Of a stretch of DNA of 64,000 nt, positions 7,899 through 49,499 are shown one piece after another. Location: contig CADEFN010000011.1 of assembly GCA_902826615.1 (NCBI GenBank), positions 1-64,000 of the forward strand, given 5' to 3'. Below the pieces are notes generated by a model. It saw only the letters and a list, made by a program, of their open reading frames with translations, was not told where the DNA came from and searched no databases. Within the stretch, counting starts at the first letter, position 1, and each line of letters starts with the position of its first letter. This DNA is from an uncultured Gemmatimonadota bacterium (GTDB lineage: Bacteria; Gemmatimonadota; Gemmatimonadetes; Gemmatimonadales; Gemmatimonadaceae). A program made the position numbers and the translations under genes.

Positions 7899-8114
7899 GT
7901 GACAAATGACGAGCAGATGATTCTCGCGGCGCTGGAGCGGCTGGGTCCCGGCGCTCACAGCATCCACGCGATCGCCGACGAGATGGCCGTGGACCTCGGG
8001 GGCGCCCCGAACGCCATGACGGTATCGCGCTGGATGGAGCGGCTGATGCACTCCGGTCACGTCGTCCGCGAGGGGAACTGGCGCCGGGCGCTCTGGAAGC
8101 AGCCCGCCGCTTGA
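7899..8114 (+). CDS. Small winged-helix DNA-binding protein
   Basis: 71 residues, GTG at 7899. Sequence pattern MILAALERLGPG, SIHAIADEMAVDLGG, NAMTVSRWMERLMHSGHVVREG fits a winged helix-turn-helix with a beta-hairpin wing. First gene after promoter module 2, so it could be a regulator. Its stop overlaps the TTG of the next gene. Confidence 0.75.
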   Translation: MTNDEQMILAALERLGPGAHSIHAIADEMAVDLGGAPNAMTVSRWMERLMHSGHVVREGNWRRALWKQPAA

Positions 8115-9608: not shown

Positions 9609-9610
9609 GC

Positions 9611-9715
9611 TGCCAACATGGCAGGGTAGAAACGCCCGGCGTGTATTGACGCGCCGGGCGTTTCTCGTGTAGTCTCTGGGTGTGGGGCGGTGAGGCCCCG
9701 CGCAAGGAAGGACGA
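9611..9715 (+). promoter_or_regulatory. Operator-promoter-leader module 3, promoter nested in a terminator
   Basis: Operator TGCCAACATGGCA at 9611-9623, a perfect palindrome with flanking C/G. -35 TTGACG at 9646-9651 lies in the loop of the terminator stem. 18-bp spacer, -10 TAGTCT at 9670-9675. Hairpin GGGGC-GGTGAG-GCCCC at 9684-9699, AAGGAAGGACGA at 9704-9715, ATG at 9721. Confidence 0.85.
9629..9664 (+). terminator. Rho-independent-type terminator overlapping a promoter
   Basis: Perfect 13-bp inverted repeat (9629-9641 / 9652-9664) with a 10-base loop, ending in GTTTC and followed by TCGTGT. It follows the ParB-like gene. The downstream promoter's -35 is in the loop and its spacer overlaps the right arm. 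Confidence 0.8.
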
Positions 9716-9927: not shown

Positions 9928-9938
9928 CAGGCACAGTT

Positions 9939-9967
9939 AGCCCCGGTGAGGGGGCTGGGAAGGACGA
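9939..9967 (+). promoter_or_regulatory. Leader hairpin plus ribosome-binding element, no promoter
   Basis: Perfect 6-bp stem AGCCCC/GGGGCT around the GGTGAG hexaloop (9939-9956), then GGAAGGACGA before the ATG at 9974. The hairpin without a promoter shows that it works at the RNA level for an internal gene. Confidence 0.75.
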
Positions 9968-9973
9968 ATCTCG

Positions 9974-10537
9974 ATGGGCTGGTACTACACGTTGGCGCCC
10001 GGGAAGCACCGTGACCTCGATGCGGAGGTCATGAAGGGCTACACGCAGCCGGATGGGGCGGTCGTGACCTTCACGGACTGCCGCCTCGTGGGCTTCCGCT
10101 CCCACTGGCACGTGATGCGTCGTGACGGCGTGCCGGTGGTGATCATGCACGAGATGGTCGAGTTCCGCCCCACCGAGTGGGGATACAAGCCGATGGACGA
10201 GACGTTCGGCCCCGTGAACGTCGACTGCCCGCTGGCCCTGCTCGACATGGTGCCACCCGTCCCGGGCGACGGTCAGGGCGCGCAGTGGGCGCGTGAGTGG
10301 CGCGCCCGGGTGCGGGCGCACCACGCGGCGCGCGCGGCGCAGACGGCGCTCTTCCGGAGCGTGCAGCCCGGTGACGAGATTCGGTTGCAGCACGCGCGGG
10401 GTATCGCCCCTGACCGCTGGCTCGGGGTGTCCGCCAAGGGCCGCGGCTCAGTGAGCGCGGGGGGCTGGAAGGTTGGCAAGCGCTTCATCGCCGAGGTCCG
10501 CCGGGCGGCCATCGGCCCTGCCAACTTGTCAGGTTGA
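9974..10537 (+). CDS. Hypothetical protein with MGWYYT N-terminus
   Basis: 187 residues. N-terminal MGWYYTLAPGKHRDLDAEV and SHWHVMRR resemble small actinophage proteins of unknown function. The basic C-terminus ends PANLSG, which is the translation of the next operator, and the TGA lies in the -35 box of module 4. Confidence 0.75.
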   Translation: MGWYYTLAPGKHRDLDAEVMKGYTQPDGAVVTFTDCRLVGFRSHWHVMRRDGVPVVIMHEMVEFRPTEWGYKPMDETFGPVNVDCPLALLDMVPPVPGDGQGAQWAREWRARVRAHHAARAAQTALFRSVQPGDEIRLQHARGIAPDRWLGVSAKGRGSVSAGGWKVGKRFIAEVRRAAIGPANLSG

Positions 10538-10605
10538 CGAGGAGCCACGACTACCGTAGTCTCCGGGTGTGGGGGCGGTGAGGCCCCCGGGCAGGAAGGA
10601 CGAGG
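10519..10605 (+). promoter_or_regulatory. Operator-promoter-leader module 4
   Basis: Operator TGCCAACTTGTCA at 10519-10531. -35 TTGACG at 10534-10539, 17-bp spacer, -10 TAGTCT at 10557-10562. Hairpin GGGGGC-GGTGAG-GCCCCC at 10571-10588, then AGGAAGGACGA, with the ATG at 10609. The operator and -35 overlap the 3' end of the upstream coding region. Confidence 0.88.
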
Positions 10606-10791: not shown

Positions 10792-10795
10792 CAAT

Positions 10796-10824
10796 CGGGC
10801 GGTGAGGCCCGGTGGAAGGACGAA
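10796..10824 (+). promoter_or_regulatory. Leader hairpin plus ribosome-binding element
   Basis: Stem CGGGC/GCCCG around GGTGAG (10796-10811) followed by GGAAGGACGA before the GTG at 10828. No -35/-10 is visible, so the gene is read from module 4. Confidence 0.7.
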
Positions 10825-12285: not shown

Positions 12286-12525
12286 GAGGTGGTGGAGCGC
12301 GTCGCGGAGGCGGTGTGGCGCGAGGCGCGCATCTCTGACTGGCTCACCGGGAAGCGGGACCTGAGTAACGACCCGCTGGGCGACTGGGGGCGCCGTCACA
12401 ACTGGACGTGGGCCAACTGTGCGCCCGAGGTGCGCGAGCATAACCGCAACATCGCGCGCGCAGCCCTAGCCGCCCTAGAGGAAGGCGCACCCGGCGGGGT
12501 TGACACGGTGCGCGTGATGCGTTAG
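12082..12525 (+). CDS. Hypothetical fusion-like protein ending in a promoter
   Basis: 147 residues, GTG at 12082. The first 65 residues are Trp-rich (WVPEWLWYWACNPVPFW). The remainder, from the internal GTG at 12277, starts NEEVVERVAEAVWREAR and resembles a separate small phage protein, so this may be two genes fused through the repeated junction. The last residues are encoded by promoter module 5, and the TAG stop is the first three bases of its -10 box. Confidence 0.7.
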   Translation: MNERHDLGYGMDRRKRGWVPEWLWYWACNPVPFWNDTVAITYPQFRLFIRPLTNLLSEPTEEVTGVNEEVVERVAEAVWREARISDWLTGKRDLSNDPLGDWGRRHNWTWANCAPEVREHNRNIARAALAALEEGAPGGVDTVRVMR

Positions 12526-12562
12526 TCTGCGGGTGCGCTGGTGAGAGCGCGCAGGAAGGACG
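12500..12562 (+). promoter_or_regulatory. Promoter-leader module 5 (no operator)
   Basis: -35 TTGACA at 12500-12505, 17-bp spacer, -10 TAGTCT at 12523-12528. Hairpin GCGCT-GGTGAG-AGCGC at 12535-12550, then AGGAAGGACGA, ATG at 12569. The closest match to the sigma-70 -35 consensus in the set. No TGCCA-type operator. Confidence 0.85.
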
Positions 12563-19072: not shown

Positions 19073-19157
19073 TGCCACTTTGGCAGTGGTGGTTGACGCG
19101 CGTATCCCACCGGGGTAGTCTCCGGGTGTGGGGCGGTGAGGCCCCCGGAAGGACGAC
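19073..19157 (+). promoter_or_regulatory. Operator-promoter-leader module 6
   Basis: Palindromic operator TGCCACTTTGGCA at 19073-19085. -35 TTGACG at 19093-19098, 17-bp spacer, -10 TAGTCT at 19116-19121. Hairpin GGGGC-GGTGAG-GCCCC at 19130-19145, then GGAAGGACGA, ATG at 19162. Operator-to--35 spacing is 7 bp versus 2 bp in modules 1, 4 and 7. Confidence 0.88.
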
Positions 19158-20845: not shown

Positions 20846-21338
20846 GGACTACGCGCGCTTCGTCCGCGAGTCGAACGCGATCGAGAACATCCACGTCGAC
20901 CCGCCCCACCCCCTCTGGACGGACCACATGGAGACGCTGCTGCTGGCCGTCCGCTTCGGGGAGTACGGCAACCTGCTGGAGCCGACGGCGATTCACCGGA
21001 AACTGATGGCGAGTCAGCCCGAGGTGTTCCCCGGGGAGCTACGGCAGGTGCACGTGCGGGTGGGCGGGGACGTGAAGATGTTGCGCGTCGAGTACCCGCG
21101 GTATGTGGAGCGCCTGCACACGCTGGTAGCCAAGCGTGAGGCGCCCAGCGAAGGGGCGCTGTTCGACCTCCACCACGAGTTCGAGTGGATTCATCCGTTC
21201 ATCGACGGGAACGGGCGGACGGGGCGCATCCTCTGGGCACACCTGCGGGTGCTCTTCCGGTACCCGCTGGAGATCATCGAGTCAGCGGAGCGCCACGCCT
21301 ACTACGAGGCGATCCGCCAGTGGGAGGCAGGACGGTGA
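20838..21338 (+). CDS. Fic family protein with built-in inhibitory motif
   Basis: 166 residues, ATG at 20838. The canonical Fic motif HPFIDGNGRTGR occupies residues 119-130; its His is the catalytic base for nucleotide transfer (usually AMP from ATP) onto target proteins. Near the N-terminus SNAIEN (S12-x3-E16-N17) fits the (S/T)xxxE(G/N) inhibitory helix, so this looks like an autoinhibited class II Fic enzyme. A ribbon-helix-helix protein follows directly. Target unknown; host takeover or defence interference are possibilities. Confidence 0.92.
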   Translation: MPEDYARFVRESNAIENIHVDPPHPLWTDHMETLLLAVRFGEYGNLLEPTAIHRKLMASQPEVFPGELRQVHVRVGGDVKMLRVEYPRYVERLHTLVAKREAPSEGALFDLHHEFEWIHPFIDGNGRTGRILWAHLRVLFRYPLEIIESAERHAYYEAIRQWEAGR

Positions 21339-21553
21339 GCAAGCGCCTGAGCATCGTGATCGGGGACGGAGACTACGCCCACTTGCAGGACCTCGCCGCC
21401 GCGCAGGAGGTATCCATCTCCGCGCTTGTCAGGGATGTGCTGCGCGTGGGCGTCTGGTACGAGCGGGAGGTGAAGGCCTACCCGGAGCGAAAGCTGCTCA
21501 TCCTGCGCCCCGGGGAGGAACTGCGCGAGCTTACGTTGCTCACGTGGGGATGA
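21335..21553 (+). CDS. Ribbon-helix-helix (CopG-like) DNA-binding protein
   Basis: 72 residues, GTG overlapping the Fic stop. RLSIVIGDGDYAHLQDLAAAQEVSISALVRDVLRVGV is a textbook RHH fold (beta strand, helix, turn, helix). The C-terminus may contact a partner. Its coupling to Fic is reminiscent of a toxin-antitoxin operon, where RHH proteins act as autoregulators. Confidence 0.8.
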   Translation: MSKRLSIVIGDGDYAHLQDLAAAQEVSISALVRDVLRVGVWYEREVKAYPERKLLILRPGEELRELTLLTWG

Positions 21554-30980: not shown

Positions 30981-31065
30981 TGCCAACTTGTCATGTTGAC
31001 GCGGGTGCACGGCGTACGGTAGTCTTCGGGTGTGGGGCGGTGAGGCCCCGCGCAAGGAAGGACGA
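30981..31065 (+). promoter_or_regulatory. Operator-promoter-leader module 7
   Basis: Operator TGCCAACTTGTCA at 30981-30993. -35 TTGACG at 30996-31001, 18-bp spacer, -10 TAGTCT at 31020-31025. Hairpin GGGGC-GGTGAG-GCCCC at 31034-31049, then AAGGAAGGACGA, ATG at 31071. Operator sequence identical to modules 1 and 4. Confidence 0.88.
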
Positions 31066-31565: not shown

Positions 31566-31970
31566 ATGACGGGCCGAGGGCCAGCCGAGTGCTCGGCTAC
31601 GATGAGTGGGCGGCACGTGTACCGGGTGCTCGGCGGGGGCATCCGGGCATGTGCCTGCGGTGCTCGCGAGGGTGTCTACACCGAGGCGCTGGAGGACGAC
31701 GTACCCCGGGGTCGCGAGGAGACGAGCCAGCAGGCCTTCGACGTGCACCAGCAGTCGGGGCGACGCTCCACCCTCCAGCAGCAGGTCCTCGACTACGTGC
31801 GGGAGCACGGCGGGGCCACCTCGGACGAGGTGGAGGTGGGGCTGGGGCTCACGCACCAGACGGCCTCGGCTCGCATGAACGACCTGAAGCGGGCGAACCT
31901 CGTGGTGAAGTCCGGGGAGCGCCGCCCCACCCGGCAGGGCAGAAACGCCGACGTGTACCGAGCCATCTAG
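31566..31970 (+). CDS. Winged-helix protein with N-terminal Cys segment
   Basis: 134 residues, ATG with GGGGGGAG upstream. CACGAREG in the first third, then LQQQVLDYVREHGGATSDEVEVGLGLTHQTASARMNDLKRANLVVKSG, a clear winged-helix domain similar to phage transcription regulators. Probably DNA binding and a candidate reader of the operators. Confidence 0.75.
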   Translation: MTGRGPAECSATMSGRHVYRVLGGGIRACACGAREGVYTEALEDDVPRGREETSQQAFDVHQQSGRRSTLQQQVLDYVREHGGATSDEVEVGLGLTHQTASARMNDLKRANLVVKSGERRPTRQGRNADVYRAI

Positions 31971-38253: not shown

Positions 38254-39039
38254 GTGGACCTCACGCTCGTCCTCTACGACGACTCGTTCTGGCGGTCCTT
38301 CCGGGACGCGCTCGTGCGCCGTGCCCGCCCCCTCTTCCGCGAAGTGTTCCTCGTCGGGGCCGCGCTGGGCGCCAACGAGGAACCTGCCGCGATCTCCGCC
38401 GTGAAGAGCGCGTCCGCGCTGGGGACGCTGATCGGCCTCGCCGCCGACCTCCCCGCCGTGGAGCTTGCCGCCATCCTCTACAAAGCGGGCGACTACCCGG
38501 GCGTCTCCGACTTCCAGCCGGAGCCGGGGCCGGACGGCCTCACCGTCCTCCCATTCGACTTCGAGGCGATCGCCGCCGCGAGCGACCAGATCATCGACGC
38601 CTACACGGACCGGTGGTGGCTCGCGCTGGAGGACACGACGCGCGAGGGCCTGCGCCGCGTGATCCGCCGCGCCGCCGACGAGGGGCTGACGATCGAGCAG
38701 GTGATGCGCGAGATCGAGCCCATGTTCGGCAAGACGCGGGCGCAGCGGATCGCCGTCTCGGAGGTCACCAACCTGCTCGGGCAGGGCGCGCAGGAGACGT
38801 ACCGGCAGGCTGGCTTCGGCGCGTGGATCTGGCGCACCGTCCGGGACGCCCGCGTCGACCCCGTGTGCGCCAAGCTCGCCGTCGACTCCGACCCCATGCA
38901 CGGCGGGACGCCGTTCCCGATGACGCGGCAGTTCGAGCGGGCGCACGTGGGATGCCGCTGCTGGCCCGTCCCGGCGGGAGACGTGATCCCCAACGCCGCT
39001 ACCGGGGCGGGGCCGTCACCGTCGTTCGGTTTCCCATAG
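38254..39039 (+). CDS. MuF-like head morphogenesis protein
   Basis: 261 residues from GTG. The C-terminal region RAQRIAVSEVTNLLGQGAQETYRQAGFGAWIWRTVRDARVDPVCAKL and HVGCRCWPVP is the phage Mu gpF/SPP1 gp7 signature (PF04233). Minor head protein that binds portal during assembly and may be ejected. In most phages it directly follows the portal; here it is 10 kb away, separated by appendage genes. Confidence 0.88.
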   Translation: MDLTLVLYDDSFWRSFRDALVRRARPLFREVFLVGAALGANEEPAAISAVKSASALGTLIGLAADLPAVELAAILYKAGDYPGVSDFQPEPGPDGLTVLPFDFEAIAAASDQIIDAYTDRWWLALEDTTREGLRRVIRRAADEGLTIEQVMREIEPMFGKTRAQRIAVSEVTNLLGQGAQETYRQAGFGAWIWRTVRDARVDPVCAKLAVDSDPMHGGTPFPMTRQFERAHVGCRCWPVPAGDVIPNAATGAGPSPSFGFP

Positions 39040-39324
39040 GCGGCGCAGCAGGTCCCGCACCGCGCGGGCCGCCTCGGCCTGCTCGGGCGTCGGTGGTCCC
39101 TCGTGGTAGGGCACCCATTCGGCGTGTACGCGGCGGTTGTTGCAGAGGCCGTGGGCGCCGACCACGCGGTACCCGGACCCGGCGCGCCGGACGTGCTCGC
39201 GGGTCAGCCCCGTGGGGTCCCGGGGCGTCCCCCGGTACTCTCGCCCGCACCACCAGCAGTGTGCGCTCCAGCAGACGCGGCAGAGCGCGTGGGCCTTTTC
39301 CTTGCGGACGCCGCGGTGCTTCAC
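39016..39324 (-). CDS. Small HNH-like / Cys-rich protein
   Basis: 102 residues, ATG overlapping the upstream stop. CRVCWSAHCWWCGREYRG, TREHV and GAHGLCNNRRVHAEW resemble compact recombination-endonuclease-VII or HNH folds (two Cys pairs with His). Last gene of the reverse operon; overlaps the MuF gene's 3' end. Enzymatic role unproven. Confidence 0.65.
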   Translation of the reverse strand: MKHRGVRKEKAHALCRVCWSAHCWWCGREYRGTPRDPTGLTREHVRRAGSGYRVVGAHGLCNNRRVHAEWVPYHEGPPTPEQAEAARAVRDLLRRLWETERR

Positions 39325-39452
39325 CCCCGCGAGCGGGGGAGCGCTTCGGGGTGAGCCTTACTCCAGCAGGTGTAGTGCCAGCAGGGGGAGCCGGTGTGCG
39401 CCGGGTGCTCGTAGTCAAAGGGCTCGCCGCACCCGGCGCACCGGCACTTCAC
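39321..39452 (-). CDS. 43-residue zinc-ribbon protein
   Basis: GTG at 39452 overlaps the preceding TGA, and its stop overlaps the next ATG. CRCAGCGEPFDYEH...CWHYTCWSK forms a CxxC...CxxxxC site with His. A longer upstream extension exists but overlaps the previous gene. Confidence 0.6.
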   Translation of the reverse strand: MKCRCAGCGEPFDYEHPAHTGSPCWHYTCWSKAHPEALPRSRG

Positions 39453-39745
39453 AGTCGCACTGTTTCCGCACCCCCCGGGTACGTGATCTGGACCACGATC
39501 CCCGGCCACTCTACCCAGAGCGCACGCGTGTCGCGAGTGGAGATGAGCGCGGCGTGGTCACCGTCGTGCGCATGGAACCGCACGCATTCGGCGTCGCCCC
39601 GCCGCGACCCGCACTGCTCCCGAGGGCGGGCCATCGGTCCACACCGGACGCACTCAAGCGTGTGCGTTCCGTAGCGATGCCGCCGGTTGCCCGCCCGTGA
39701 GTGCCCGCATGGCAGGGACCGCTCCACCGTGCGCTCGGTCGTCAT
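39449..39745 (-). CDS. Cys/His-rich hypothetical protein
   Basis: 98 residues, ATG at 39745 (GTG 39748 possible). CGHSRAGNRRHRYGTHTLECVRCG and CGSRRGDAECVRFHAHDGDH suggest two metal sites. Coupled on both sides within the reverse operon. Confidence 0.66.
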   Translation of the reverse strand: MTTERTVERSLPCGHSRAGNRRHRYGTHTLECVRCGPMARPREQCGSRRGDAECVRFHAHDGDHAALISTRDTRALWVEWPGIVVQITYPGGAETVRL

Positions 39746-39933
39746 CACTCCGCCTCCGCCGCCTCCACGTCCTGCACGATGGGGGCGAGCTTGGTCAGTG
39801 TCAGCACCAGCCCCAGCGCACCCACCAGCAGGTAGGCCCAGTCGTGGACGAGCAGGCCGTACATGGTTAGCCCGCCCGTCACCGCCAGCGCGGAGGCGAA
39901 CATGGCGTAGAGGGCGAGGACGACGAGGCTCAC
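39745..39933 (-). CDS. Two-helix membrane protein
   Basis: 62 residues, GTG at 39933. Two hydrophobic segments (LVVLALYAMFASALAVTGGL and WAYLLVGALGLVLTLTKL) and a short acidic tail. Holin-like in topology, but too little evidence for that name, and it is not next to a lysin. Confidence 0.65.
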   Translation of the reverse strand: MSLVVLALYAMFASALAVTGGLTMYGLLVHDWAYLLVGALGLVLTLTKLAPIVQDVEAAEAE

Positions 39934-40220
39934 GGGGTCACCGCCCGCACCCAGTCCTGCGCGAACTGGTCCATGTCGATGGCCCCCTGATACACGGTCT
40001 TGTCGTCCTCCCAGATCGTCAGCGTCAGCCACTTCGACCCCATGCCCGCACCGGCATCCAGTTCGACCCGGCGATTGCCGGACGCCCCGGACAGCCACTG
40101 CACGCGGAAGCCGCAAACGATCAGGGATTCCAGTTCGCGGGCGTGGGCGATGACTTCCTTCTCCGGCGAGATGGAGTCGGTCGTGAGTTCCTTGCCGCCT
40201 ATCGAGGCTCGTACGTTCAT
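39930..40220 (-). CDS. Hypothetical protein
   Basis: 96 residues, ATG at 40220. NVRASIGGKELTTDSISPEKEVIAHARELESL is strand then helix; C-terminus DQFAQDWVRAV. Overlaps both neighbours by four bases. Unrecognised. Confidence 0.68.
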   Translation of the reverse strand: MNVRASIGGKELTTDSISPEKEVIAHARELESLIVCGFRVQWLSGASGNRRVELDAGAGMGSKWLTLTIWEDDKTVYQGAIDMDQFAQDWVRAVTP

Positions 40221-40477
40221 CGTGTCACCGCTTCCAGTCGGAGCCCCATGTCCAGCCCGCAATACGTCACGCGGTGCCCGTTGACGAGCAGCACGCCACC
40301 CTCGCGGAACCGCGTCGCGCTCTCCGGGAGGTGGAGGCGTTCGATGTGCACCCGCCCGTTCCCGTGCCGGACGTTCACCCGCTCGTCAGGGTCGGCGTCG
40401 TCGTCCGCGTAGTACGCCACGTCGCAGCGGCGGCAGAGATCCGGTGGGTACTCTTCGGTCACGTTCTCCCACGTCAT
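40217..40477 (-). CDS. Small protein with CRRC motif
   Basis: 86 residues, ATG at 40477 after GGAAGGACGA on the reverse strand. DLCRRCDVAYYADDDADPDE, then beta-rich sequence. Upstream is an 8-bp inverted repeat (40498-40505/40527-40534) that may be its leader hairpin. Confidence 0.7.
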   Translation of the reverse strand: MTWENVTEEYPPDLCRRCDVAYYADDDADPDERVNVRHGNGRVHIERLHLPESATRFREGGVLLVNGHRVTYCGLDMGLRLEAVTR

Positions 40478-40562
40478 CGGTTTCGTCCTTCCAGTTCGCC
40501 GGGGGCGGGCCGTGCGCCGTACCCAACCCCCGGCGGCGGCAGCGTACCGCGCTGCTCGGAGC

Positions 40563-40991
40563 TTAGGCGACGCCTCGGATGCCAGCAGCGCAGAGCGGGC
40601 ATCCCCGCATGCGCTCGGGGAGCCCCGCCGCACGGCGGGCGCCCGGGTCGTGCTTCCCCTTGCGGTGGTCGTCGCTCCGCTTCTGGGCTAGGGCGCGCTG
40701 GCGTGCCTTGCGTGCCCGGCTGTCCGGGGTGCTGCGGTCGAAGAGCCGTTCGCGCTGCCCGGCGATCGCCGCGCTCACCTTGTCGGGGAGAATCAGCCGG
40801 GCGCGCCCGTCGTCATCGACGATCTGGAGGAACGTCAGCACTCCCTCCTCGTGGCGCACGGATTGCACCACGTAGGTCGTCACGTTCCCCACGATGGGCA
40901 GGCTGTCCATCACCGTCGAGGGCCGGGTCATCCGGTGCCCCGGGAGCCCTTCGAGGGCTCCATAGATGCGGTCAAACTTGTCGGTGGTCAC
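40563..40991 (-). CDS. Hypothetical protein with basic tail and terminal CPLC
   Basis: 142 residues, GTG at 40991 after GGAAGGACGG. The N-terminal half is beta-rich (VTTYVVQSVRHEEGVLTFLQIVDDDGRARLILP); the tail is Arg/Lys-rich (RKARQRALAQKRSDDHRKGKH) with RMRGCPLCAAG. This layout is known in small actinophage proteins, possibly DNA binding. Confidence 0.72.
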   Translation of the reverse strand: MTTDKFDRIYGALEGLPGHRMTRPSTVMDSLPIVGNVTTYVVQSVRHEEGVLTFLQIVDDDGRARLILPDKVSAAIAGQRERLFDRSTPDSRARKARQRALAQKRSDDHRKGKHDPGARRAAGLPERMRGCPLCAAGIRGVA

Positions 40992-41031
40992 GGTCCGTCC
41001 TTCCAGCACCCCTCACCGGGCGCATGTTCCC

Positions 41032-41286
41032 CTACTCGTCGTCGCAGGCGTTGCAGCCCGCCCCTGCGTCCGGGCAGGGCTCGTAGCCGTCCGCCAGCAG
41101 GCGGTGCAACTCTCGGGAGCCCAGCACGACTCGCACGTGGTTCTCCGTCCCCGCCCACACGTGGCCGCGTGGCGCGTAGGCGCGGTACTCGCGCCCGCTC
41201 CCGTGGAGATCGGCCACGTCCACCGATACCCCGTCGTCGAGGTCGAACGTGTCTCCAACAGTGCGCAGGTCCGGCAGGTTCACCAT
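41032..41286 (-). CDS. First gene of the reverse operon, acidic protein
   Basis: 84 residues, ATG at 41286 after GAGGAAGGACGA. TVGDTFDLDDGVSVDVADLHG, REYRAYAPRGHVWAGTENHVRVVLG and a Cys-containing end. Directly controlled by promoter module 8. Unrecognised. Confidence 0.75.
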   Translation of the reverse strand: MVNLPDLRTVGDTFDLDDGVSVDVADLHGSGREYRAYAPRGHVWAGTENHVRVVLGSRELHRLLADGYEPCPDAGAGCNACDDE

Positions 41287-41290: not shown

Positions 41291-41378
41291 TCGTCCTTCC
41301 TCGGGGGCTCACTCCCCCCCAGCACACGGAGACTAACATAGTGCCGCACGACTGTCAACACACCATGACAACATGGCA
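41291..41378 (-). promoter_or_regulatory. Operator-promoter-leader module 8 (reverse)
   Basis: Reading leftward: operator TGCCATGTTGTCA (41378-41366), -35 TTGACA (41358-41353), 17-bp spacer, -10 TAGTCT (41335-41330). Hairpin GGGGG-AGTGAG-CCCCC (41318-41303), GGAAGGACGA (41300-41291). Shares its operator with module 9. Confidence 0.9.
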
Positions 41379-41451
41379 TGGTAGTTGACGAGGTGCACGC
41401 CAACCGTGTAGTCTCCGTGTGCGGCAGTGAGGCCGCGCAAGGGAAGGACGA
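41366..41451 (+). promoter_or_regulatory. Operator-promoter-leader module 9 (forward, divergent)
   Basis: Operator TGACAACATGGCA at 41366-41378. -35 TTGACG at 41385-41390, 18-bp spacer, -10 TAGTCT at 41409-41414. Hairpin GCGGC-AGTGAG-GCCGC at 41421-41436, then GGAAGGACGA, ATG at 41457. The two -35 boxes flank one operator at 6-7 bp on each side. Confidence 0.9.
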
Positions 41452-41456: not shown

Positions 41457-41699
41457 ATGGTGAAGCTGATCGATGCGGACTTCGCGAGGCAGGCGCAGGA
41501 GCGTGCTGCCGACGTGGCGGGCGACCGGGGCTACCCCGCCCCACGCCGCGTGATCGACACGGATTTCGCGGCGCACGCGTGGACCGTGCTGCTCGTAGAC
41601 GGGCTCACCGAGGGGATCCTTGTCTACGAGGACGACCCCGGTGTGCTGGCCTCGGTGGAGAACCGCCCCGGGCGGTTCATTGAGGCCGGTGCGGCGTGA
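41457..41699 (+). CDS. Hypothetical protein under module 9
   Basis: 80 residues, ATG set by the ribosome-binding element. VKLIDADFARQAQERAADV, then VIDTDFAAHAWTVLLVDGLTEGILVYEDD. Unrecognised. Overlaps the next gene by four bases. Confidence 0.75.
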   Translation: MVKLIDADFARQAQERAADVAGDRGYPAPRRVIDTDFAAHAWTVLLVDGLTEGILVYEDDPGVLASVENRPGRFIEAGAA

Positions 41700-42166
41700 C
41701 GGAGATTCCCCGCGCGCTGCGGGATAGGCCGCTCTGGCACGGCATGCCCGTCCCGATGAACGTGGTGTGGGACCGGAATGGCACCCCGGACTTCGCCAGC
41801 CTGAATCACGAACTGAGCGTGGCGCTCGGCAAGGCGCGCCAGTGCGGCATGTGCGGCAAGCGGATGCGGGGTGAGGCAGCCTTTATCGGCGGGCCGCACT
41901 CGCTGGAGGCGGGTCTGTTCCGGGACGGCCCCATGCACCCGGAGTGCGCGCGCTACGCGATGCAGGTCTGCCCGTTTGTGAGCGGGACGCACCGGCAGTA
42001 CCGGTCGCTGGACGTGGAGCGCGAGCACGCCACGCCCATCGCGGTGCATCCCACGGCCCCGCCGCCCCAGCAGATGGGGCTCATCCGATGCAGGCGGTAC
42101 GACATGCTGCCGGGAGGGCTCTTCCACGCGGTGGATCGAGTCGGAGAGACGGAGTGGGTTCAGTGA
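41696..42166 (+). CDS. Conserved phage Cys/His protein
   Basis: 156 residues from GTG. WDRNGTPDFASLNHEL, CGMCGKRM...FIGGP, MHPECARYAMQVCPF is a recognised small actinophage family with CxxC...HxxC ligands preceding a helical CPF segment. Biological role unknown. Confidence 0.75.
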   Translation: MTEIPRALRDRPLWHGMPVPMNVVWDRNGTPDFASLNHELSVALGKARQCGMCGKRMRGEAAFIGGPHSLEAGLFRDGPMHPECARYAMQVCPFVSGTHRQYRSLDVEREHATPIAVHPTAPPPQQMGLIRCRRYDMLPGGLFHAVDRVGETEWVQ

Positions 42167-42294
42167 TCGACCGCACGCGCAAGCGAGAGGTCCGCGAGGA
42201 GCGCCGCCGCAAGCGGCACCCGGTGCACGGGCGCTCGTGGCAACACGCCGCGAACGCGATCCGGCGCCGGGCGGAGCAGAAGGGGGCGAGATGA
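42163..42294 (+). CDS. 43-residue highly basic protein
   Basis: GTG overlapping the previous TGA; its own stop overlaps the next ATG. About 40 percent Arg/Lys (RTRKREVREERRRKRHPVHG). Could bind nucleic acid. Accepted because of the two coupling overlaps. Confidence 0.58.
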   Translation: MIDRTRKREVREERRRKRHPVHGRSWQHAANAIRRRAEQKGAR

Positions 42295-42440
42295 GTCGAG
42301 CGCTGGCGCGCACGATCCGTGGCTTCCGCCACTGGCTCTCGAAGCGCACGCATGACGCCGGGCGCGGACGGCATTGCATCTACTGGCTGGAGCGCGGTTG
42401 CTGCGTGTGCAAGCACTCAGGACGTGGATTCCCGGCATGA
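42291..42440 (+). CDS. 49-residue basic Cys protein
   Basis: ATG overlaps the previous stop. Helical N-terminus (ALARTIRGFRHWLSKRTH) and HCIYWLERGCCVCKHSG, a possible metal site. Function unknown. Confidence 0.55.
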   Translation: MSRALARTIRGFRHWLSKRTHDAGRGRHCIYWLERGCCVCKHSGRGFPA

Positions 42441-42458
42441 CCGAGAGGAAGGGGACGG

Positions 42459-42872
42459 ATGGCAGGTAAGACAAGCGAGGTCGAGGCGCTGCTGGAGCGC
42501 TACCCGGACAAGCGGCTCCCCTACGGGGCCGCCGCCGAGGTGGCGCGCGAGGTCGGCGTGTCGCGGCAACTGGTGTTCACAGTGGCGAACCGGCTGGGGT
42601 ACGAGCGAGAGTCCCGGGCGCCGGTGCGGAAGTGCAGACAGTGCAACCGAAGCACGCGCGTCCAGACGGGCATCTGCGCGCGATGCTCCCCCCGCAAGCC
42701 CCAGTACATCGAGGTCAAGTGCGCCGGGTGTGACGTGATGGTGAGGCGGCTGAAAAGCGCGCTGAACTCCCAGCGTGCCTCCCGGGGCTACACGGGCAAG
42801 ATCTTCCACTCGCGCGAGTGCGCCGCGGCGTACTACAAGGGCGTCCCGCTGGCGGAGCGCTCAGCCAACTAG
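42459..42872 (+). CDS. Helix-turn-helix protein with zinc ribbons
   Basis: 137 residues from ATG. The N-terminal EALLERYPDKRLPYGAAAEVAREVGVSRQLVFTVANRLGYE is a helix-turn-helix. Then CRQCNRSTRVQTGICARC and VKCAGCDVMVRR...FHSRECAAAYYKG give two zinc ribbons, the second typical of phage DNA-binding or HNH-adjacent folds. Candidate DNA-binding regulator. Confidence 0.78.
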   Translation: MAGKTSEVEALLERYPDKRLPYGAAAEVAREVGVSRQLVFTVANRLGYERESRAPVRKCRQCNRSTRVQTGICARCSPRKPQYIEVKCAGCDVMVRRLKSALNSQRASRGYTGKIFHSRECAAAYYKGVPLAERSAN

Positions 42873-42874
42873 CT

Positions 42875-42904
42875 CCCCGCGGTGAGGCGGGGTCGGAAGG
42901 ACGA
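42875..42904 (+). promoter_or_regulatory. Leader hairpin plus ribosome-binding element
   Basis: 6-bp stem CCCCGC/GCGGGG around GGTGAG (42875-42892), then GGAAGGACGA before the ATG at 42908. No promoter boxes. The stem sequence differs from other copies but stays paired. Confidence 0.75.
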
Positions 42905-42907
42905 GGG

Positions 42908-44107
42908 ATGAACAGACAGCGAGAGACGCTGCGCCATATCCGTGAAGCACTCGGCGTCTCCTTCGAGGACATGGCCGCGGCGCTGCGGCGCCTCCACCCG
43001 GAGGCACCATTCACGGACCGGGCGCTCACCCGGTACGAGCGTCACCCCATCCACAAGAGCAACCACCGGCTGAAGCCCGAGATCGGATACGACGAGGTGG
43101 AGGCGGCGATTCATGCTGCCTCCCAGCCGGAGGCACCCGCTCCACCCGCCCCAACCGCGGGGCGAAGTCCACTGCTCCCGGCGGGCGTGGCGGACACAGA
43201 CGCGATCCTGAAGCGCGTCAATCTAGCCCGTCATGAGTTCTCGACGCTCTGGATGGACGAGACGGTCCCCTACGGGGACGTGCTGAAACTGGGGCTCACG
43301 GACGCGGAGGTGCGGCGCCTCTGCATCGACCTCTACCTGACGGCCCGCAAGCCATTCGACCCGGCGAAGTACGCCGCGCTCGTCGCCTCTTCCTTTGTGA
43401 TGCTGGAGGAGGTGGCCCGCGACCCCAGCCTCGCGGACGGCAAGTTCGTGGACGCGAACCGGGGGATGCCCAAGGCGGAGATCGCGCAGCGTCTCTCCGC
43501 GGCGCTGCACAATCCACCGCGCGGCCCCAACGGTGACGAGATCGTGCCCAACCGGGCATGGAATAACGCCGGTGAGGAAGCGAAGCGCCGGGCGTTTCTG
43601 GAGATCGACCGGCTGGGCCTGAAGCGCGAGACGTTCCTGCTGAGCTACCAGACGCGTCACACGCACGACATCGTGGAGCGGTACGGCTGGAAGTCCAACT
43701 GGATGCTCTACCTCGTCCTCGCGGCGCTGGGCATCCCGCTTCGGAACGCGCCACCGGACGCCGAGCCGGGGGACTGGCCGGACCGCATCGACCCGCGGCC
43801 CCGCCCGGAACCGGTCGCGGAACCAGTGGGGGTGGCGCGAGAACCAGATAGGGAACCGGTCGCGGAACCAGTGGAACGAGTGGAAGAGGCAGCGGTGGTC
43901 GAGAAGCTGAACCGGGAGCCGGACTACGCGGTCCCCGCCGTGGCCGATGCGCTCACCGCGCTGCGCGCCCGGTACCGCACCGTGTCGGACGAACTGGTCG
44001 CGGTCCGTGAGCGGGAGGCGGAGTTGACCCGCGAGTACGACCAGTTGCGGGAGGCGATCGAGCGGCTGGACGGCCTGCGCCTGATCTACGAAGGCGCCGG
44101 TGGATAG
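42908..44107 (+). CDS. Hypothetical DNA-binding-like protein with coiled-coil tail
   Basis: 399 residues. The N-terminus RQRETLRHIREALGVSFEDMAAALRRLHPEAPFTDRALTRYE is helix-turn-helix-like. A central alpha domain follows, with YQTRHTHDIVERYGW and WMLYLVLAALGIPL. Then a Pro/Glu linker with the EPVAEPV unit repeated (43807 and 43853 regions), and a C-terminal coiled coil (LVAVREREAELTREYDQLREAIERL). Not recognised; one of the largest unknowns in the small-gene sets. Confidence 0.72.
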   Translation: MNRQRETLRHIREALGVSFEDMAAALRRLHPEAPFTDRALTRYERHPIHKSNHRLKPEIGYDEVEAAIHAASQPEAPAPPAPTAGRSPLLPAGVADTDAILKRVNLARHEFSTLWMDETVPYGDVLKLGLTDAEVRRLCIDLYLTARKPFDPAKYAALVASSFVMLEEVARDPSLADGKFVDANRGMPKAEIAQRLSAALHNPPRGPNGDEIVPNRAWNNAGEEAKRRAFLEIDRLGLKRETFLLSYQTRHTHDIVERYGWKSNWMLYLVLAALGIPLRNAPPDAEPGDWPDRIDPRPRPEPVAEPVGVAREPDREPVAEPVERVEEAAVVEKLNREPDYAVPAVADALTALRARYRTVSDELVAVREREAELTREYDQLREAIERLDGLRLIYEGAGG

Positions 44108-44369
44108 CTGCGCGGTGATCGTCGGCGCCCGGTTCGCCGCCGGGGGTGTGCCATGCGGCCATCCCCGGGCGGCGCACGTGGGGACGGTGGAGACGGTCGG
44201 GGCGTCCGCCCGGGTGGTGTGGCGCTGCTCCCCCTGCGCGGACGACGGGCGGCCAGAGCGGGTGGCGCCCGACGTGGCTGGCGCCCAGCACCGCTTCTCG
44301 GACGGCGCGCCGCTCAGCACCGTCGTGAAGCCCCGAAAGCCCGTGCGCTTGATTGGAGATCCGGAGTGA
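44100..44369 (+). CDS. Small Cys-containing protein
   Basis: 89 residues, GTG at 44100 overlapping the previous gene. VPCGHPRAAHVG and WRCSPCADDG give CGH and CxxC ligands. Function unknown; its stop overlaps the next ATG. Confidence 0.65.
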   Translation: MDSCAVIVGARFAAGGVPCGHPRAAHVGTVETVGASARVVWRCSPCADDGRPERVAPDVAGAQHRFSDGAPLSTVVKPRKPVRLIGDPE

Positions 44370-44545
44370 TGTGCGTGCGCTGCAATGGGCCGCTCGGAGC
44401 CCGCGGGATCGCGCTCTGCGACTCCTGCATGGCCGATCTGGGACACCCGGTGGGGTCCCACTGGTGGGGGAACGTCACCGCGTTCCTGCTCCCCGTGCTG
44501 CTCGGGCTGGTCGCGACCGTCGCCCTCTTGCTGGCGGTGCGGTGA
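44369..44545 (+). CDS. Zinc-ribbon plus membrane-helix protein
   Basis: 58 residues. CVRCNGPLGARGIALCDSC is a CxxC...CxxC ribbon, followed by one membrane helix (VTAFLLPVLLGLVATVALLLAV). Topology suggests a ribbon in the cytoplasm tethered to the membrane. Confidence 0.7.
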   Translation: MCVRCNGPLGARGIALCDSCMADLGHPVGSHWWGNVTAFLLPVLLGLVATVALLLAVR

Positions 44546-44559
44546 GCTAGGATCGCGTC

Positions 44560-45030
44560 ATGCCCCTGCGCCTGATCGCGATCCAGCCATCCCGCCTCCC
44601 GATGGCGGACAACACGATGGAGCTTGTCGAGGCGCAGATCGGCGCGCTCGGATTCGCGCGGGACGTGATCAACGACCTCGCCAACTACCCCCCGGCGCAG
44701 CCGTGGACGAGCCGTCCCCCGCGCACGGGGCCGCGCGCCGGGGGGCGACGCACCGGCACGCTGGGCCGCGGCTGGCGACTCCCCTCCTCGCTTCGCACCG
44801 TGCGGCGCGGGACGGAGCGGCGCGTCGAGATGGTCAACCTCACGGAGTACGCCGTCTACGTGCAGGGTCCGCCGGATGGCCCCGAGGGTGCGCGGCAGAC
44901 GCCCGTCATGGCGGCGCGGAACTGGCCGAACATCACGGAGGTCGCGCAGCGCCGCTGGGCGGAGCACGAGGGGGTGGTCGTGCGCATCATCACCCAGCAG
45001 GACCCACGCCTCCGCCGCCGCTCCCTCTAG
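44560..45030 (+). CDS. Head-tail connector-like protein
   Basis: 156 residues. TAGGAT ends six bases before the ATG with no Shine-Dalgarno, so it may be leaderless. VNLTEYAVYVQGPPDGPEGARQTPVMAARNWPNITEVAQRRW resembles HK97 gp10-type tail-completion or neck proteins (YA..V.G...Q....W). Placed between accessory genes and the capsid protease; the assignment is tentative. Confidence 0.55.
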   Translation: MPLRLIAIQPSRLPMADNTMELVEAQIGALGFARDVINDLANYPPAQPWTSRPPRTGPRAGGRRTGTLGRGWRLPSSLRTVRRGTERRVEMVNLTEYAVYVQGPPDGPEGARQTPVMAARNWPNITEVAQRRWAEHEGVVVRIITQQDPRLRRRSL

Positions 45031-45090
45031 CACGCTGAAACTGCTGATCGGTGTACCCTCATGCCCGGTAGGGGCATAAGGGGGCCGCCG

Positions 45091-46635
45091 ATGATGGATG
45101 TCGTTGAGGTCGGGGCGCCGTGGCAGTACGCGGGCGGAGCGACCAGCTTCACCGAGCTTGACCGCTGGCACGCCCAGCAGGACCGCATCGATGCCGTCGC
45201 GCACGTCAACTTCCAGTTCGACATGCTGCTCGACAACATCCGCCAGCAGGAGATCAGCGCCGCCGAGAAGGCGGCCAAAATGTCGACGCTGGTGGCCGAG
45301 TACAGCGAGCGCACCACCGACGCCGCGGCCAACCCGGAGGAAGCGTTCAAGGCGCTGCGCGCCGCCGTGCAGGCGATCGCGCGCCCGGAGCTTCCCTCCG
45401 CGACCGGCATGGCCGGGACGTTCACCGCATCGAAGGACCGCACGGGCCAGACGCGCTGGATCACGGTGCACGCGAACAAGTACCGCGACCGCGATCAGGA
45501 GATCTTCAAGGACGCGGCCCACAAGGATTACGAGGCGTACGTGGACGCATCGGGGGACTACCCCGACCTGCGTCTCTGGCACGTCCCCTACCCGGTGGGC
45601 AAGGCCGATGTGGTCGCGTACGACGCGGACCACGGTTTCATGGTGGCATCCGGGACGTTCCTCCCGGGGTTCGAGGACGTGGCCGACCGGCTCGTCGAGG
45701 CGGGTAAGTCCGCCTCGCTGGGGTGCTCCCACGGCTTCAAGTACCACATGCTCGATCGACTCGACCGCGAGTTCGACTGGTACCGCGATTTCGAGATCTC
45801 GATCCTGCCGCTGGATGCGGCAGCGAACCCGCTGACCGATGGCGGGCTCGTGTTCACCGGCAGGGAGGCCGACGACATGACCATCTCGACGAAGCAGCGC
45901 ACGTTCCTCGTCGACATGCTGGGCGAGGAGCGCATGGCGGACGTGGAGTCCCGCATCGCCACGCTCGCGAAGCAGGCAAGCGAAGAGGGCATCGACTTCA
46001 AGGCAGTGGCCGAGTCCTTCAAGGACGAGACGCCACCCGTCGCCGAGGCCGTCGCGGAAGAGTCCGCTCCCCCGGCAGGGGAAGAGGCGCCGTCGGGTGA
46101 GCCCGCGGCGGAGGGGGACGGCGATGGCGGTGAACCCGGTGTCACTGGGGAGGCTGGCGACGGTGGGGGCGACGCTGCGCCTGCTGCCGCCGAGCCCGGT
46201 GCGCTTGACACCCCGGTCGACGGGCAGCCCACGCAGCCCCTCGACACTCCCGGTGTCGCCGCCGCCGCGCCGCTTCCGACGGACGAAGGGTCGAAGGAAG
46301 CGCAGTTCGTGAACCTGCTGGAAGCGGCGATCGGGCGCGCGATGACGCCGCTCGTCGAGCGCATGGACGTGCTGGAGGCGGGCCACAAGGCGCTCGCGGA
46401 GCACGCCGAGCGCAGCTTCCTCGACAGCATCGCGAGCGCCATCCGGCCCCGCGTGGGCGTCACGGACGCGAAGGCGGCCAGCGAGTCGCCCGCCAACGTC
46501 ATCCCGCGGGAGCTTGTCGACGCCGTGAAGGCCCGGGTGGACCCGGAGCCGGAGGAGTCGGGCTCGCCCGCGTGGCTCGCCCCGTACATGCAGGGGCTCC
46601 ATTCGGCGCCCGTGGTCAACGGGGCAGGTGCATAG
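45091..46635 (+). CDS. Capsid maturation protease fused to a scaffold-like domain
   Basis: 514 residues, ATG at 45091 with AAGGGGG seven bases upstream (an ATG at 45061 lacks one). Residues ~115-250 look like a prohead protease: DLRLWHVPYPVGKAD (catalytic His) and SASLGCSHGFKYHML (catalytic Ser). After about residue 300 comes an acidic Ala/Pro/Gly-rich linker, then a helical region (FVNLLEAAIGRAMTPLVERMDVLEAGHKALAEH) as in internal scaffolds. Such fusions cleave themselves out during capsid maturation. Confidence 0.75.
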   Translation: MMDVVEVGAPWQYAGGATSFTELDRWHAQQDRIDAVAHVNFQFDMLLDNIRQQEISAAEKAAKMSTLVAEYSERTTDAAANPEEAFKALRAAVQAIARPELPSATGMAGTFTASKDRTGQTRWITVHANKYRDRDQEIFKDAAHKDYEAYVDASGDYPDLRLWHVPYPVGKADVVAYDADHGFMVASGTFLPGFEDVADRLVEAGKSASLGCSHGFKYHMLDRLDREFDWYRDFEISILPLDAAANPLTDGGLVFTGREADDMTISTKQRTFLVDMLGEERMADVESRIATLAKQASEEGIDFKAVAESFKDETPPVAEAVAEESAPPAGEEAPSGEPAAEGDGDGGEPGVTGEAGDGGGDAAPAAAEPGALDTPVDGQPTQPLDTPGVAAAAPLPTDEGSKEAQFVNLLEAAIGRAMTPLVERMDVLEAGHKALAEHAERSFLDSIASAIRPRVGVTDAKAASESPANVIPRELVDAVKARVDPEPEESGSPAWLAPYMQGLHSAPVVNGAGA

Positions 46636-46695
46636 ACCCCTTCCGTGATTTAGACTCGCCCACGAAGGACGAGTGAACAGGCAAGGAAGCCTCAA

Positions 46696-48213
46696 ATGGT
46701 CACTGCTCCTCTCGCCACCGCGCAGCAGGGCGCCGACGACTCCATGGATCGGTTCCTCGACCGCATGTCACAGCGGCTGGAGGAGCGACTGGGAGTCAAG
46801 TCGCTTGCCCGCGGCTACAAGCACGACGCGTCGGGCACGCCGACGAGCACCGGCTACATCCACGGCCCCGGCGGCCTCCTCTCCTACCCGGGGGTCGACC
46901 CCGACGTGTTCCACACGGTGGTGGGGGCGAAGGGCATCCTCGGGCAGCTTCCCGTGCGGCCCGCGCGCGACACCAACCCGCTCTTCTCGGTGATCACCGG
47001 CGTCGGCGACGACTCCGGCGCCGAAAAGACCGAGGTATGTGACCCGGCGCCGACCGCGGGCATCCTCTCGGCCTGCATGCTCTCCTCGGTGTTCGCGCGC
47101 TACGAGCGCGCCACCCCGGAACTGGAGATCAACCGGCTGGGCCAGCGCACCGACCGCTCGGACCCGATGGACCTTCGGCTCGTCGGCACGCCGCTCGCGG
47201 ACAGCGCCGCCTTCCTCTCCGGTCCCGCCGCGCAGGGGACGCCGGGCAACCTCCTCCAGAACGAGGTGGCCCAGCGAATGTGGGAGCTTGGTGTCTCCCT
47301 CCACCGCCTGCTCTCCCGCCAGTTGTGGACGGGCAACCCCGCGAACAATAACGGCGACGCCTACCGGGAACTCACCTCGTTCCCCATCCTCGTCAACACG
47401 GGGCACGCGGACGTGCTCACCAACACGTCCTGCCCGTCCATCGACAGCGATGTCAAGGACTTCGACTACGCCGACGTGGCGACGGCGGGCTCCGATCTGG
47501 TCAACGCCCTCACGTACATCTTCCGCACGCGTCGCTCGCTCGCCGAGCGCACCGGCGTCACCCCGGTCCGCTGGGTGCTGGTCATGCGCGAGGAACTGTT
47601 CTACGAGGTGAGTGCGGTGTGGCCCTGCGCCTACCTCACCTACCGGTGCTCGTTCGGCGACAACGAGGCGGCCCGCCTCCTCGTCTCCGGCGACGAGCAG
47701 ACCAAGCTCCGCATCGCGATGCGCGAGGGCCGCTACCTCATGATCGACGACCAGCAGGTCGAGGTCGTGTTCGATGACGGCATCCCGATGCAGACGAGCA
47801 CGTCGGGTGGCACGGGCTCCGGGAACGTGCCCAACGGGGCGTTCGCCTCGGACATCTACCTGATCCCGATGTCCATCCTCGGTGGCCGCGCGGTCACCTA
47901 TCTGGAGCACTTCGACTACTCCAACCCGGACATCCGCTCGGCGATCGCCGGGCTGGAGCCCGGCGCCTACACGGTCGATGGTCCGTGGATCACGACCACG
48001 CGCCGGTCCATCTGGTGCTTCAACTGGCAGACCAAGATCGAGCCGCGGCTGATCCTGCGGACGCCATGGCTTGCCGGGCGACTCCAGAACGTGGTCGCCA
48101 TGCCGCTCCAGTACACCCGGTCGCCGTTCCCCGACGACCCGTACTTCGTGGCTGGCGGTGGTGTCACGACCCGCTCCGGCCCGTCGTACTTCACCCCGCT
48201 CTGGGGCGCGTAG
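46696..48213 (+). CDS. Major capsid protein (HK97-fold type)
   Basis: 505 residues, ATG with AAGGA eight bases upstream. It follows the protease and precedes a strong terminator. Features include QLPVRPARDTNPLFSVITGVGDDSG, a long helix region (LLQNEVAQRMWELGVSLHRLLSRQLW), WVLVMREELFYEVSAVWPC and VVFDDGIPMQT...SDIYLIPMSILGG, in the order expected for E-loop, spine helix and P-domain. A GGACGA element just upstream is followed by an out-of-frame GTG. Confidence 0.8.
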   Translation: MVTAPLATAQQGADDSMDRFLDRMSQRLEERLGVKSLARGYKHDASGTPTSTGYIHGPGGLLSYPGVDPDVFHTVVGAKGILGQLPVRPARDTNPLFSVITGVGDDSGAEKTEVCDPAPTAGILSACMLSSVFARYERATPELEINRLGQRTDRSDPMDLRLVGTPLADSAAFLSGPAAQGTPGNLLQNEVAQRMWELGVSLHRLLSRQLWTGNPANNNGDAYRELTSFPILVNTGHADVLTNTSCPSIDSDVKDFDYADVATAGSDLVNALTYIFRTRRSLAERTGVTPVRWVLVMREELFYEVSAVWPCAYLTYRCSFGDNEAARLLVSGDEQTKLRIAMREGRYLMIDDQQVEVVFDDGIPMQTSTSGGTGSGNVPNGAFASDIYLIPMSILGGRAVTYLEHFDYSNPDIRSAIAGLEPGAYTVDGPWITTTRRSIWCFNWQTKIEPRLILRTPWLAGRLQNVVAMPLQYTRSPFPDDPYFVAGGGVTTRSGPSYFTPLWGA

Positions 48214-48401: not shown

Positions 48402-48752
48402 ATGGATGTGCGCATTGGCTACTCGCGGATCGTCGAGCCGCTGGGGTTCCTGACCGACGGCAAGCGGATGCTCCGGGACGACGACGAACTGCTCATCGAG
48501 GTCGCGGCAGCGGACACGATCGACGGCGAAGGCCCGACGCAGCGCGACGGGTACATGCGCCTCCTCTGGCACGCCCGGGAGGACCCGGAGGGCGAGGCCG
48601 TCGGCTCGATCACGATCACGCTCGGCCTATCCGCCGCGGCCAACCTCGCGGCGGCGCTCAGTGAGGCCGTCTGGCTCTCCGCCGCGCACGACGCCAAGCT
48701 CCTGCCAGATTGGCAGGTCGTGGACGTTGACGAGGGCGCACCGGCAGGGTAG
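48402..48752 (+). CDS. Hypothetical protein ending in promoter 10
   Basis: 116 residues, ATG after GGAGGACGAGCC. IGYSRIVEPLGFLTDGKRMLRDDDELLIEVA then a beta-rich region and LGLSAAANLAAALSEAVWLS. The 188 bases upstream hold the capsid terminator and a TACGCT -10-like box but no clear -35. Its C-terminus VDVDEGAPAG is encoded by promoter module 10, with the TAG stop inside the -10. Confidence 0.72.
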   Translation: MDVRIGYSRIVEPLGFLTDGKRMLRDDDELLIEVAAADTIDGEGPTQRDGYMRLLWHAREDPEGEAVGSITITLGLSAAANLAAALSEAVWLSAAHDAKLLPDWQVVDVDEGAPAG

Positions 48753-48795
48753 TCTCCGGGTGTGGGGCGGTGAGGCCCCGCGCAAGGAAGGACGA
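48703..48795 (+). promoter_or_regulatory. Operator-promoter-leader module 10
   Basis: Perfect palindromic operator CCTGCCAGATTGGCAGG at 48701-48717 (core 48703-48715). -35 TTGACG at 48727-48732, 17-bp spacer, -10 TAGTCT at 48750-48755. Hairpin GGGGC-GGTGAG-GCCCC at 48764-48779, AAGGAAGGACGA, ATG at 48802. Confidence 0.9.
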
Positions 48796-49469: not shown

Positions 49470-49471
49470 CG

Positions 49472-49499
49472 GAGCCGGTGAGGGCTCTGGAAGGACGAA
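49472..49499 (+). promoter_or_regulatory. Leader hairpin plus ribosome-binding element
   Basis: Stem GAGCC/GGCTC around GGTGAG (49472-49487), then GGAAGGACGA before the ATG at 49505. No promoter. Confidence 0.72.

What the first reader, a model, noticed from the sequence alone, without database searches (positions are those of the whole stretch)
41291..41451. One operator controlling two divergent modules
Operator 41366-41378 is centred between a leftward promoter (-35 TTGACA, 7 bp away) and a rightward one (-35 TTGACG, 6 bp away), each with its own AGTGAG hairpin and ribosome-binding element. It drives an eight-gene reverse operon (41286 to 39016) and a rightward set (41457 onward). This geometry is typical of a switch.
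Basis: partly seen in the sequence, partly recalled or inferred. Interest (0 to 1): 0.7.

Follow-up and report, generated by a model that had tools for sequence, protein, structure and literature searches.

The report
Shared phage operator, one of ten
A short DNA control site sits exactly midway between two back-to-back promoters in a previously unknown phage; it is one of ten such sites that tag nearly all promoters of this phage, so it most likely turns the two gene sets on or off together with the rest of the phage rather than choosing between them.

Summary
TGACAACATGGCA (41366-41378) lies exactly midway between TTGACA-N17-TAGTCT (leftward) and TTGACG-N18-TAGTCT (rightward). The gap to each -10 is 30 bp, and each transcript has an AGTGAG hairpin and a GGAAGGACGA ribosome-binding element.

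It is not a stand-alone switch. The window is part of an essentially complete, circularly mapping ~83.5-kb phage. The site is one of ten TGNCA-N3-TGNCA sites on it (0.7 expected). Nine lie just upstream of the same promoter type; the tenth lies before the recT transcript. Operator+TTGAC occurs 11 times in the 5.9-Mb bin, 9 of them on this contig.

The hairpin is real: its stem varies with compensatory changes (98% of cells paired against 58% in shuffles) while the loop, RGUGAG, is nearly constant. It also occurs without a promoter, just before the RBS.

Best reading: a small phage DNA-binding protein, most likely a repressor, coordinates many operons; at 41.37 kb one operator co-regulates two. 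A toggle is not supported: neither operon encodes an evident repressor and the geometry is symmetric. Activation through the upstream site, as in P2 late promoters, is the main rival. The regulator and the sign of control are inferred, not shown.

The parts
41366..41378 (.). Shared operator TGACAACATGGCA: two TGNCA boxes 8 bp apart, i.e. a 13-bp imperfect palindrome
41330..41358 (-). Leftward promoter TTGACA-N17-TAGTCT
41385..41414 (+). Rightward promoter TTGACG-N18-TAGTCT
41301..41320 (-). Leader hairpin of the leftward transcript (loop AGUGAG)
41419..41438 (+). Leader hairpin of the rightward transcript (loop AGUGAG)
41291..41300 (-). Ribosome-binding / start-associated element GGAAGGACGA, leftward
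41442..41451 (+). Ribosome-binding / start-associated element GGAAGGACGA, rightward
39016..41286 (-). Leftward operon: eight small genes of unknown function
41457..48213 (+). Rightward set: small genes, then 514-aa (putative protease/scaffold) and 505-aa (putative major capsid) genes; the capsid names are inferred from gene order, no family hit; joint transcription inferred
3467..3510 (+). Same operator type + promoter, first gene 3551
9611..9675 (+). Same operator type + promoter, first gene 9721
10519..10562 (+). Same operator type + promoter, first gene 10609
19073..19121 (+). Same operator type + promoter, first gene 19162
30981..31025 (+). Same operator type + promoter, first gene 31071
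48703..48755 (+). Same operator type + promoter, first gene 48802
7827..7856 (+). Same promoter family (TAGGCT -10) WITHOUT operator
12500..12528 (+). Same promoter family WITHOUT operator
42874..42893 (+). Internal hairpin (loop GGUGAG) without a promoter, just before GGAAGGACGA of gene 42908
41005..41024 (-). Internal hairpin (loop GGUGAG) before gene 40991-40563(-)
9938..9957 (+). Internal hairpin before gene 9974
10794..10813 (+). Internal hairpin before gene 10828
49470..49489 (+). Internal hairpin before gene 49505
21335..21553 (+). Candidate regulator: 72-aa CopG-like ribbon-helix-helix protein (weak)
31617..31970 (+). Candidate regulator: 117-aa MarR-like winged helix, second gene behind an operator-bearing promoter
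7899..8114 (+). Candidate regulator: 71-aa possible winged helix (weak), first gene of an operator-less promoter

Best explanation
This is one copy of a phage-wide expression cassette. Its parts, in order, are an upstream operator of two TGNCA boxes on an 8-bp pitch, a sigma70-like promoter (TTGACR-N16-18-TAGTCT), a hairpin starting at about +1 with an RGUGAG loop, and a GGAAGGACGA start-associated element before the start codon. At 41.37 kb two cassettes stand back to back and share one operator in mirror symmetry. SHOWN (sequence and statistics): the architecture, its repetition, the spacing, the hairpin covariation, and its near-restriction to this contig. INFERRED: one small phage-encoded DNA-binding protein binds the ten sites and controls the tagged operons together, most likely as a repressor. 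In four promoters a third, imperfect box (TGACG) falls on the -35, and one promoter (78083) carries a four-box array. The divergent site therefore co-represses and co-releases the leftward small-gene operon and the rightward set leading into the capsid genes. The hairpin plus GGAAGGACGA act after transcription (5'-end protection or translation initiation), because the pair also occurs before internal genes without a promoter.
For: Ten operators, nine just upstream of TTGAC/TAGTCT promoters. PWM scores are separated: ten sites at 17.6 or more, one at 12.9 beside another operator, the rest at 9.4 or less. Exact TGNCA pairs occur 10 times at distance 8 and at most twice at any other distance from 4 to 39. 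In the 5.9-Mb bin the operator+TTGAC pattern has 11 hits, 9 on this contig, with 0 for reversed controls; in a phylum-wide sample of 395 genomes the full pattern occurs in only one other genome, once. Core promoters with and without the operator look equally good (TTGACG/A, TAGTCT), so the operator is not obviously needed for basal recognition, which favours repression. Operator-to-promoter spacing is not held to one helical phase (operator centres -43 to -65). Hairpin: 97.8% of cells paired against 58.1% in shuffles, 30 double-change cells against 9; of 18 RBS-linked RGTGAG copies 17 have stems of 5 bp or more and the other forms a 7-nt-loop hairpin by inspection, against 2 of 129 elsewhere with 4 bp or more.
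Against: No operator overlaps a -10 or a start site; all lie upstream of -35 (centres -43 to -65), which is also where activators bind. No classical phage repressor or integrase was found in Pfam/PHROG scans, and lysogeny is unproven. The regulator is not identified; the candidates are weak. Single-leader folding energies are no better than shuffles, so the hairpin rests on covariation. Several cassettes look like recent copies of each other, so they are not all independent evidence. The only other copy of this phage found is 99.8-100% identical, so no divergent relative allows an evolutionary test.
Confidence: 0.5

Rival explanations
1. The site binds a phage activator (P2 Ogr-like or Mu C/Mor-like logic): the protein docks just upstream of -35 and recruits RNA polymerase to middle/late promoters, here to two divergent promoters from one site.
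For: All operators lie upstream of -35, centred at -43 to -65. The 81928 operator stands at a similar distance (28 bp) from a TAGCCT -10 that lacks a recognisable -35. In P2-like phage Smp131 the putative late promoters PP' and PO' are read from one shared TGT-N12-ACA site, and P2 late operons need the Ogr activator (PMC3931495).
Against: Operator-bearing promoters have near-consensus -35 boxes as good as the operator-less ones. Spacings mix helical phases (24-26, 28, 30, 34, 45-46 bp to -10). No Ogr-like protein was identified.
Confidence: 0.3
2. A true bistable switch: occupancy of the shared operator fires one direction and shuts the other.
For: Divergent promoters around one operator.
Against: Mirror symmetry with identical 30-bp gaps; the same operator type at single promoters elsewhere; no evident repressor gene in either operon; only one operator with two boxes at this locus.
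Confidence: 0.05
3. The operator is a nucleoid/partition site (for example for the ParB-like protein at 8784-9608) and its promoter proximity is incidental.
For: The phage encodes a ParB_N protein whose gene ends 2 bp before operator 9611.
Against: Nine of ten sites are placed just upstream of one promoter type, which a partition site would not require; no ParA was seen in the scans.
Confidence: 0.07

Closest known systems
Cluster K mycobacteriophage SAS/ESAS (TM4, Adephagia, Pixie)
   Same: Repeated start-associated ribosome-binding elements before many genes; about half carry an upstream module with an inverted repeat, in Adephagia with a SigA-like promoter of spacer 17-18 (PMC3203893; PMC11373665).
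   Different: Different element sequence (GGAAGGACGA, not GGGATAGGAGCCC). The inverted repeats there are 17-bp conserved sequences; here there is a separate 13-bp operator plus an RNA hairpin with variable, compensated stem and constant loop.
P2-like late promoters with shared Ogr site (PP/PO)
   Same: One palindromic site serving two divergent promoters in a capsid-gene region (PMC3931495).
   Different: Site is TGT-N12-ACA there, TGNCA-N3-TGNCA here; strong -35 boxes here; no Ogr-like protein found.
Cluster A mycobacteriophage (L5) repressor operators/stoperators
   Same: Many copies of one 13-bp repressor site spread over a phage genome (PMC6550527).
   Different: L5 sites are asymmetric and mostly not at promoters; here sites are symmetric and nearly all at promoters.
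Tandem-box operators of ribbon-helix-helix repressors (MetJ met boxes, CopG 13-bp operator; from memory)
   Same: Short symmetric boxes on an 8-bp pitch, two or more per operator; the phage encodes a CopG-like protein.
   Different: No evidence that this RHH protein binds these sites; it lies beside a Fic gene and may be an antitoxin.

Membership tests
Cluster K SAS/ESAS | 13-bp GGGATAGGAGCCC element at start codons | tested here: not met
   The element is GGAAGGACGA
Cluster K SAS/ESAS | Upstream module with promoter and inverted repeat on a subset of the start elements | tested here: met
   Promoter plus operator on a subset; hairpin on about half of the elements, but a different kind of repeat
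L5-type stoperator system | Asymmetric 13-bp sites, mostly away from promoters | tested here: not met
   Sites symmetric, nine of ten at a matching promoter and the tenth before the recT transcript
L5-type stoperator system | Repressor protein binding the sites | not testable with these tools
   Binding cannot be tested; no homologue recognised in family scans
P2 Ogr-type late promoter | Shared upstream palindrome serving divergent promoters | tested here: met
   Operator centre at -49 from the assumed +1 of both promoters
P2 Ogr-type late promoter | TGT-N12-ACA sequence | tested here: not met
   Sequence is TGNCA-N3-TGNCA
P2 Ogr-type late promoter | Cys4 zinc-finger activator of the Ogr family | tested here: inconclusive
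   Not among the Pfam/PHROG hits shown; several Cys-rich small proteins exist
Lambda-like genetic switch | Repressor gene in one of the divergent operons, multiple graded operators | tested here: not met
   One operator at this locus; no recognised repressor in the flanking operons

The most novel reading that the evidence does not exclude
An unclassified phage lineage uses a modular, portable gene-start cassette: a tandem 8-bp-box operator, a promoter, and a covarying RNA hairpin with a constant RGUGAG loop locked to one ribosome-binding element. A phage protein or the ribosome recognises the loop and gives a second, post-transcriptional layer of genome-wide control.
Probability: 0.35. Interest if true: 0.65.

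Novelty: new variant of a known kind. Interest (0 to 1): 0.45.

Why it matters
It gives a mapped regulon (ten operators, twelve TTGAC/TAGTCT-type promoters, about nineteen leader hairpins) for an uncultivated phage with almost no relatives in the phage collections searched, from sequence alone. The constant-loop, variable-stem hairpin fixed to one ribosome-binding element is a testable RNA signal, and it resembles the unexplained SAS/ESAS elements of mycobacteriophages without sharing their sequence.

Tried and rejected
Relatives by megablast of 39-43 kb and by tblastn of the 861-aa, capsid and terminase proteins in phages: none, or only 24-27% identity to terminases. Capsid and terminase in viral contigs: none. 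Promoter and hairpin patterns in viral contigs gave only hits without the rest of the cassette, taken as chance. A same-family genome holds a 41% terminase relative but its contig has none of the motifs. Genome contigs gave the same phage in another MAG; two other hits kept a 4-5-bp stem but were single, and were taken as chance. Rfam: no family in the window. The consensus promoter scanner missed these promoters because their -10 is too far from TATAAT. HTH_36 protein 77603-78034, flanked by two operators, was considered as repressor, but its best matches are replication-initiation families. Leader fold-energy z-scores were uninformative. An actinobacterial host was suspected and then dropped: no WhiB in the bin. 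DUF5131 relatives in viral contigs were not pursued.

Full report
What was checked. The operator is 7 bp from the leftward -35 and 6 bp from the rightward -35; because the promoter spacers are 17 and 18, the gap from operator to -10 is 30 bp on both sides. The leftward operon is eight genes if a 43-aa Cys-rich ORF (39452-39321) is counted.

What the window is. It is bases 1-64000 of an 83,332-bp contig in a 5.9-Mb genome bin without a detected 16S gene. The contig carries a terminase (16584), portal (25859), MuF-like head protein (38254), endolysin, RecT and RusA. The same phage is present at 99.8-100% identity in contig CADEFQ010000013.1 of another MAG, labelled an uncultured proteobacterium. 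There the two ends of our contig are joined by 159 further bases that complete a gene, so the map is circular and the genome essentially complete. Being binned in different MAGs, the phage has no certain host. Relatives are almost absent from the collections searched.

The operator family. Ten TGNCA-N3-TGNCA sites lie on the contig; a first-order Markov model of the contig gives 0.74. A position-weight scan separates these ten (17.6 bits or more) from the rest, with one intermediate site (12.9) beside the 78048 operator. Exact TGNCA pairs occur ten times at distance 8 and at most twice at any other distance from 4 to 39. At 78032-78060 four boxes keep this register. In four promoters a third, imperfect box (TGACG) is part of the -35. 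So the operator can be read as a 13-bp palindrome or as tandem 5-bp palindromic boxes on an 8-bp pitch. Nine sites stand just upstream of TTGACR-N16-18-TAGTCT promoters; the tenth stands before the leftward recT transcript with a TAGCCT -10. In the whole bin, operator plus TTGAC occurs 11 times, 9 of them on this contig; reversed-pattern controls give 0. Of 395 genomes sampled across the phylum, one other had the full operator-promoter pattern, once. Two promoters of the same family, 7827 and 12500, lack the operator.

The leader. These promoters are followed by a hairpin starting at about the predicted +1, with loop RGTGAG. Across 15 distinct hairpins all six stem pairs change on both sides; 97.8% of cells are paired against 58.1% in shuffles and 44-58% when the partners are slid. 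Of the RGTGAG motifs near GGAAGGACG, 17 of 18 form a stem of at least 5 bp with the 6-nt loop, and the last (7477) forms one with a 7-nt loop, by inspection. Of 129 other RGTGAG motifs only two have stems of 4 bp or more, and one of those is the leader of the 77510 promoter. Five hairpins have no promoter but still precede GGAAGGACGA, or in one case GGAAGGACGG. GGAAGGACGA before ATG occurs 25 times in the bin, 23 of them on this contig. Individual leaders are not unusually stable compared with shuffles, so the case rests on covariation, loop constancy and location. A possible role, inferred from sequence only: the loop GGUGA can pair with UCACC next to the anti-Shine-Dalgarno sequence, and a hairpin at the 5' end can slow decay.

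How it most likely works. One phage protein binds all ten operators. Because core promoters with and without operators look equally strong, because the operator-promoter spacing mixes helical phases, and because a box lies on the -35 in four promoters, repression is preferred (about 0.5) over activation (about 0.3). All operators being upstream of -35 is the best argument for activation. In both cases the divergent site at 41.37 kb coordinates two operons; its symmetry argues against a toggle. The regulator is not identified. Candidates are a CopG-like 72-aa protein (weak Pfam hit; low-confidence model with CopG as the top but non-significant fold match), a MarR-like 117-aa protein and a 71-aa possible winged helix that is the first gene of an operator-less promoter. 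No integrase or classical repressor was found, so lysogeny is not established.

Comparison. The cassette is closest in organisation to the SAS/ESAS elements of cluster K mycobacteriophages, in divergent geometry to P2-like late promoters, and in number of sites to the cluster A operators and stoperators. It fails a defining sequence feature of each, so it is filed as a new variant of a known kind: a phage-wide operator regulon.

Noticed in passing
window 1-64000 (contig of 83,332 bp): The same phage at 99.8-100% identity is in another MAG (CADEFQ010000013.1, labelled proteobacterium); our contig lacks 159 bp at its ends. Host assignment by binning is therefore uncertain.
   Followed up: yes
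L009:17928-18060 (contig 81928-82060): Intergenic region between leftward recT and the rightward gene 82162 with repeated AGGGGGCGCAGGCTCTGCGCC units; part of it is a run of N in the other assembly. Possible origin or binding array.
   Followed up: no
window 20838-21553: Fic/Doc-family gene directly followed by a CopG-like ribbon-helix-helix gene: possible toxin-antitoxin pair behind an operator-bearing promoter.
   Followed up: partly
window 36795-37546: Internal direct repeats (47-210 bp units) inside the 861-aa gene 35665-38250.
   Followed up: no
window 50342-56727: Nucleotide-sugar epimerase/dehydratase, a 236-aa putative glycosyltransferase and a 1065-aa multi-domain glycosyltransferase within the structural region: possible surface or virion glycosylation module.
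   Followed up: no
L009:13603-14034 (contig 77603-78034): HTH_36 / replication-initiation-like gene flanked on both sides by operators, with its own divergent promoter lacking the TAGTCT leader.
   Followed up: partly
window 9606-9623: Operator 9611 begins 2 bp after the end of a ParB_N-domain gene (8784-9608); no ParA was seen in the family scans.
   Followed up: no
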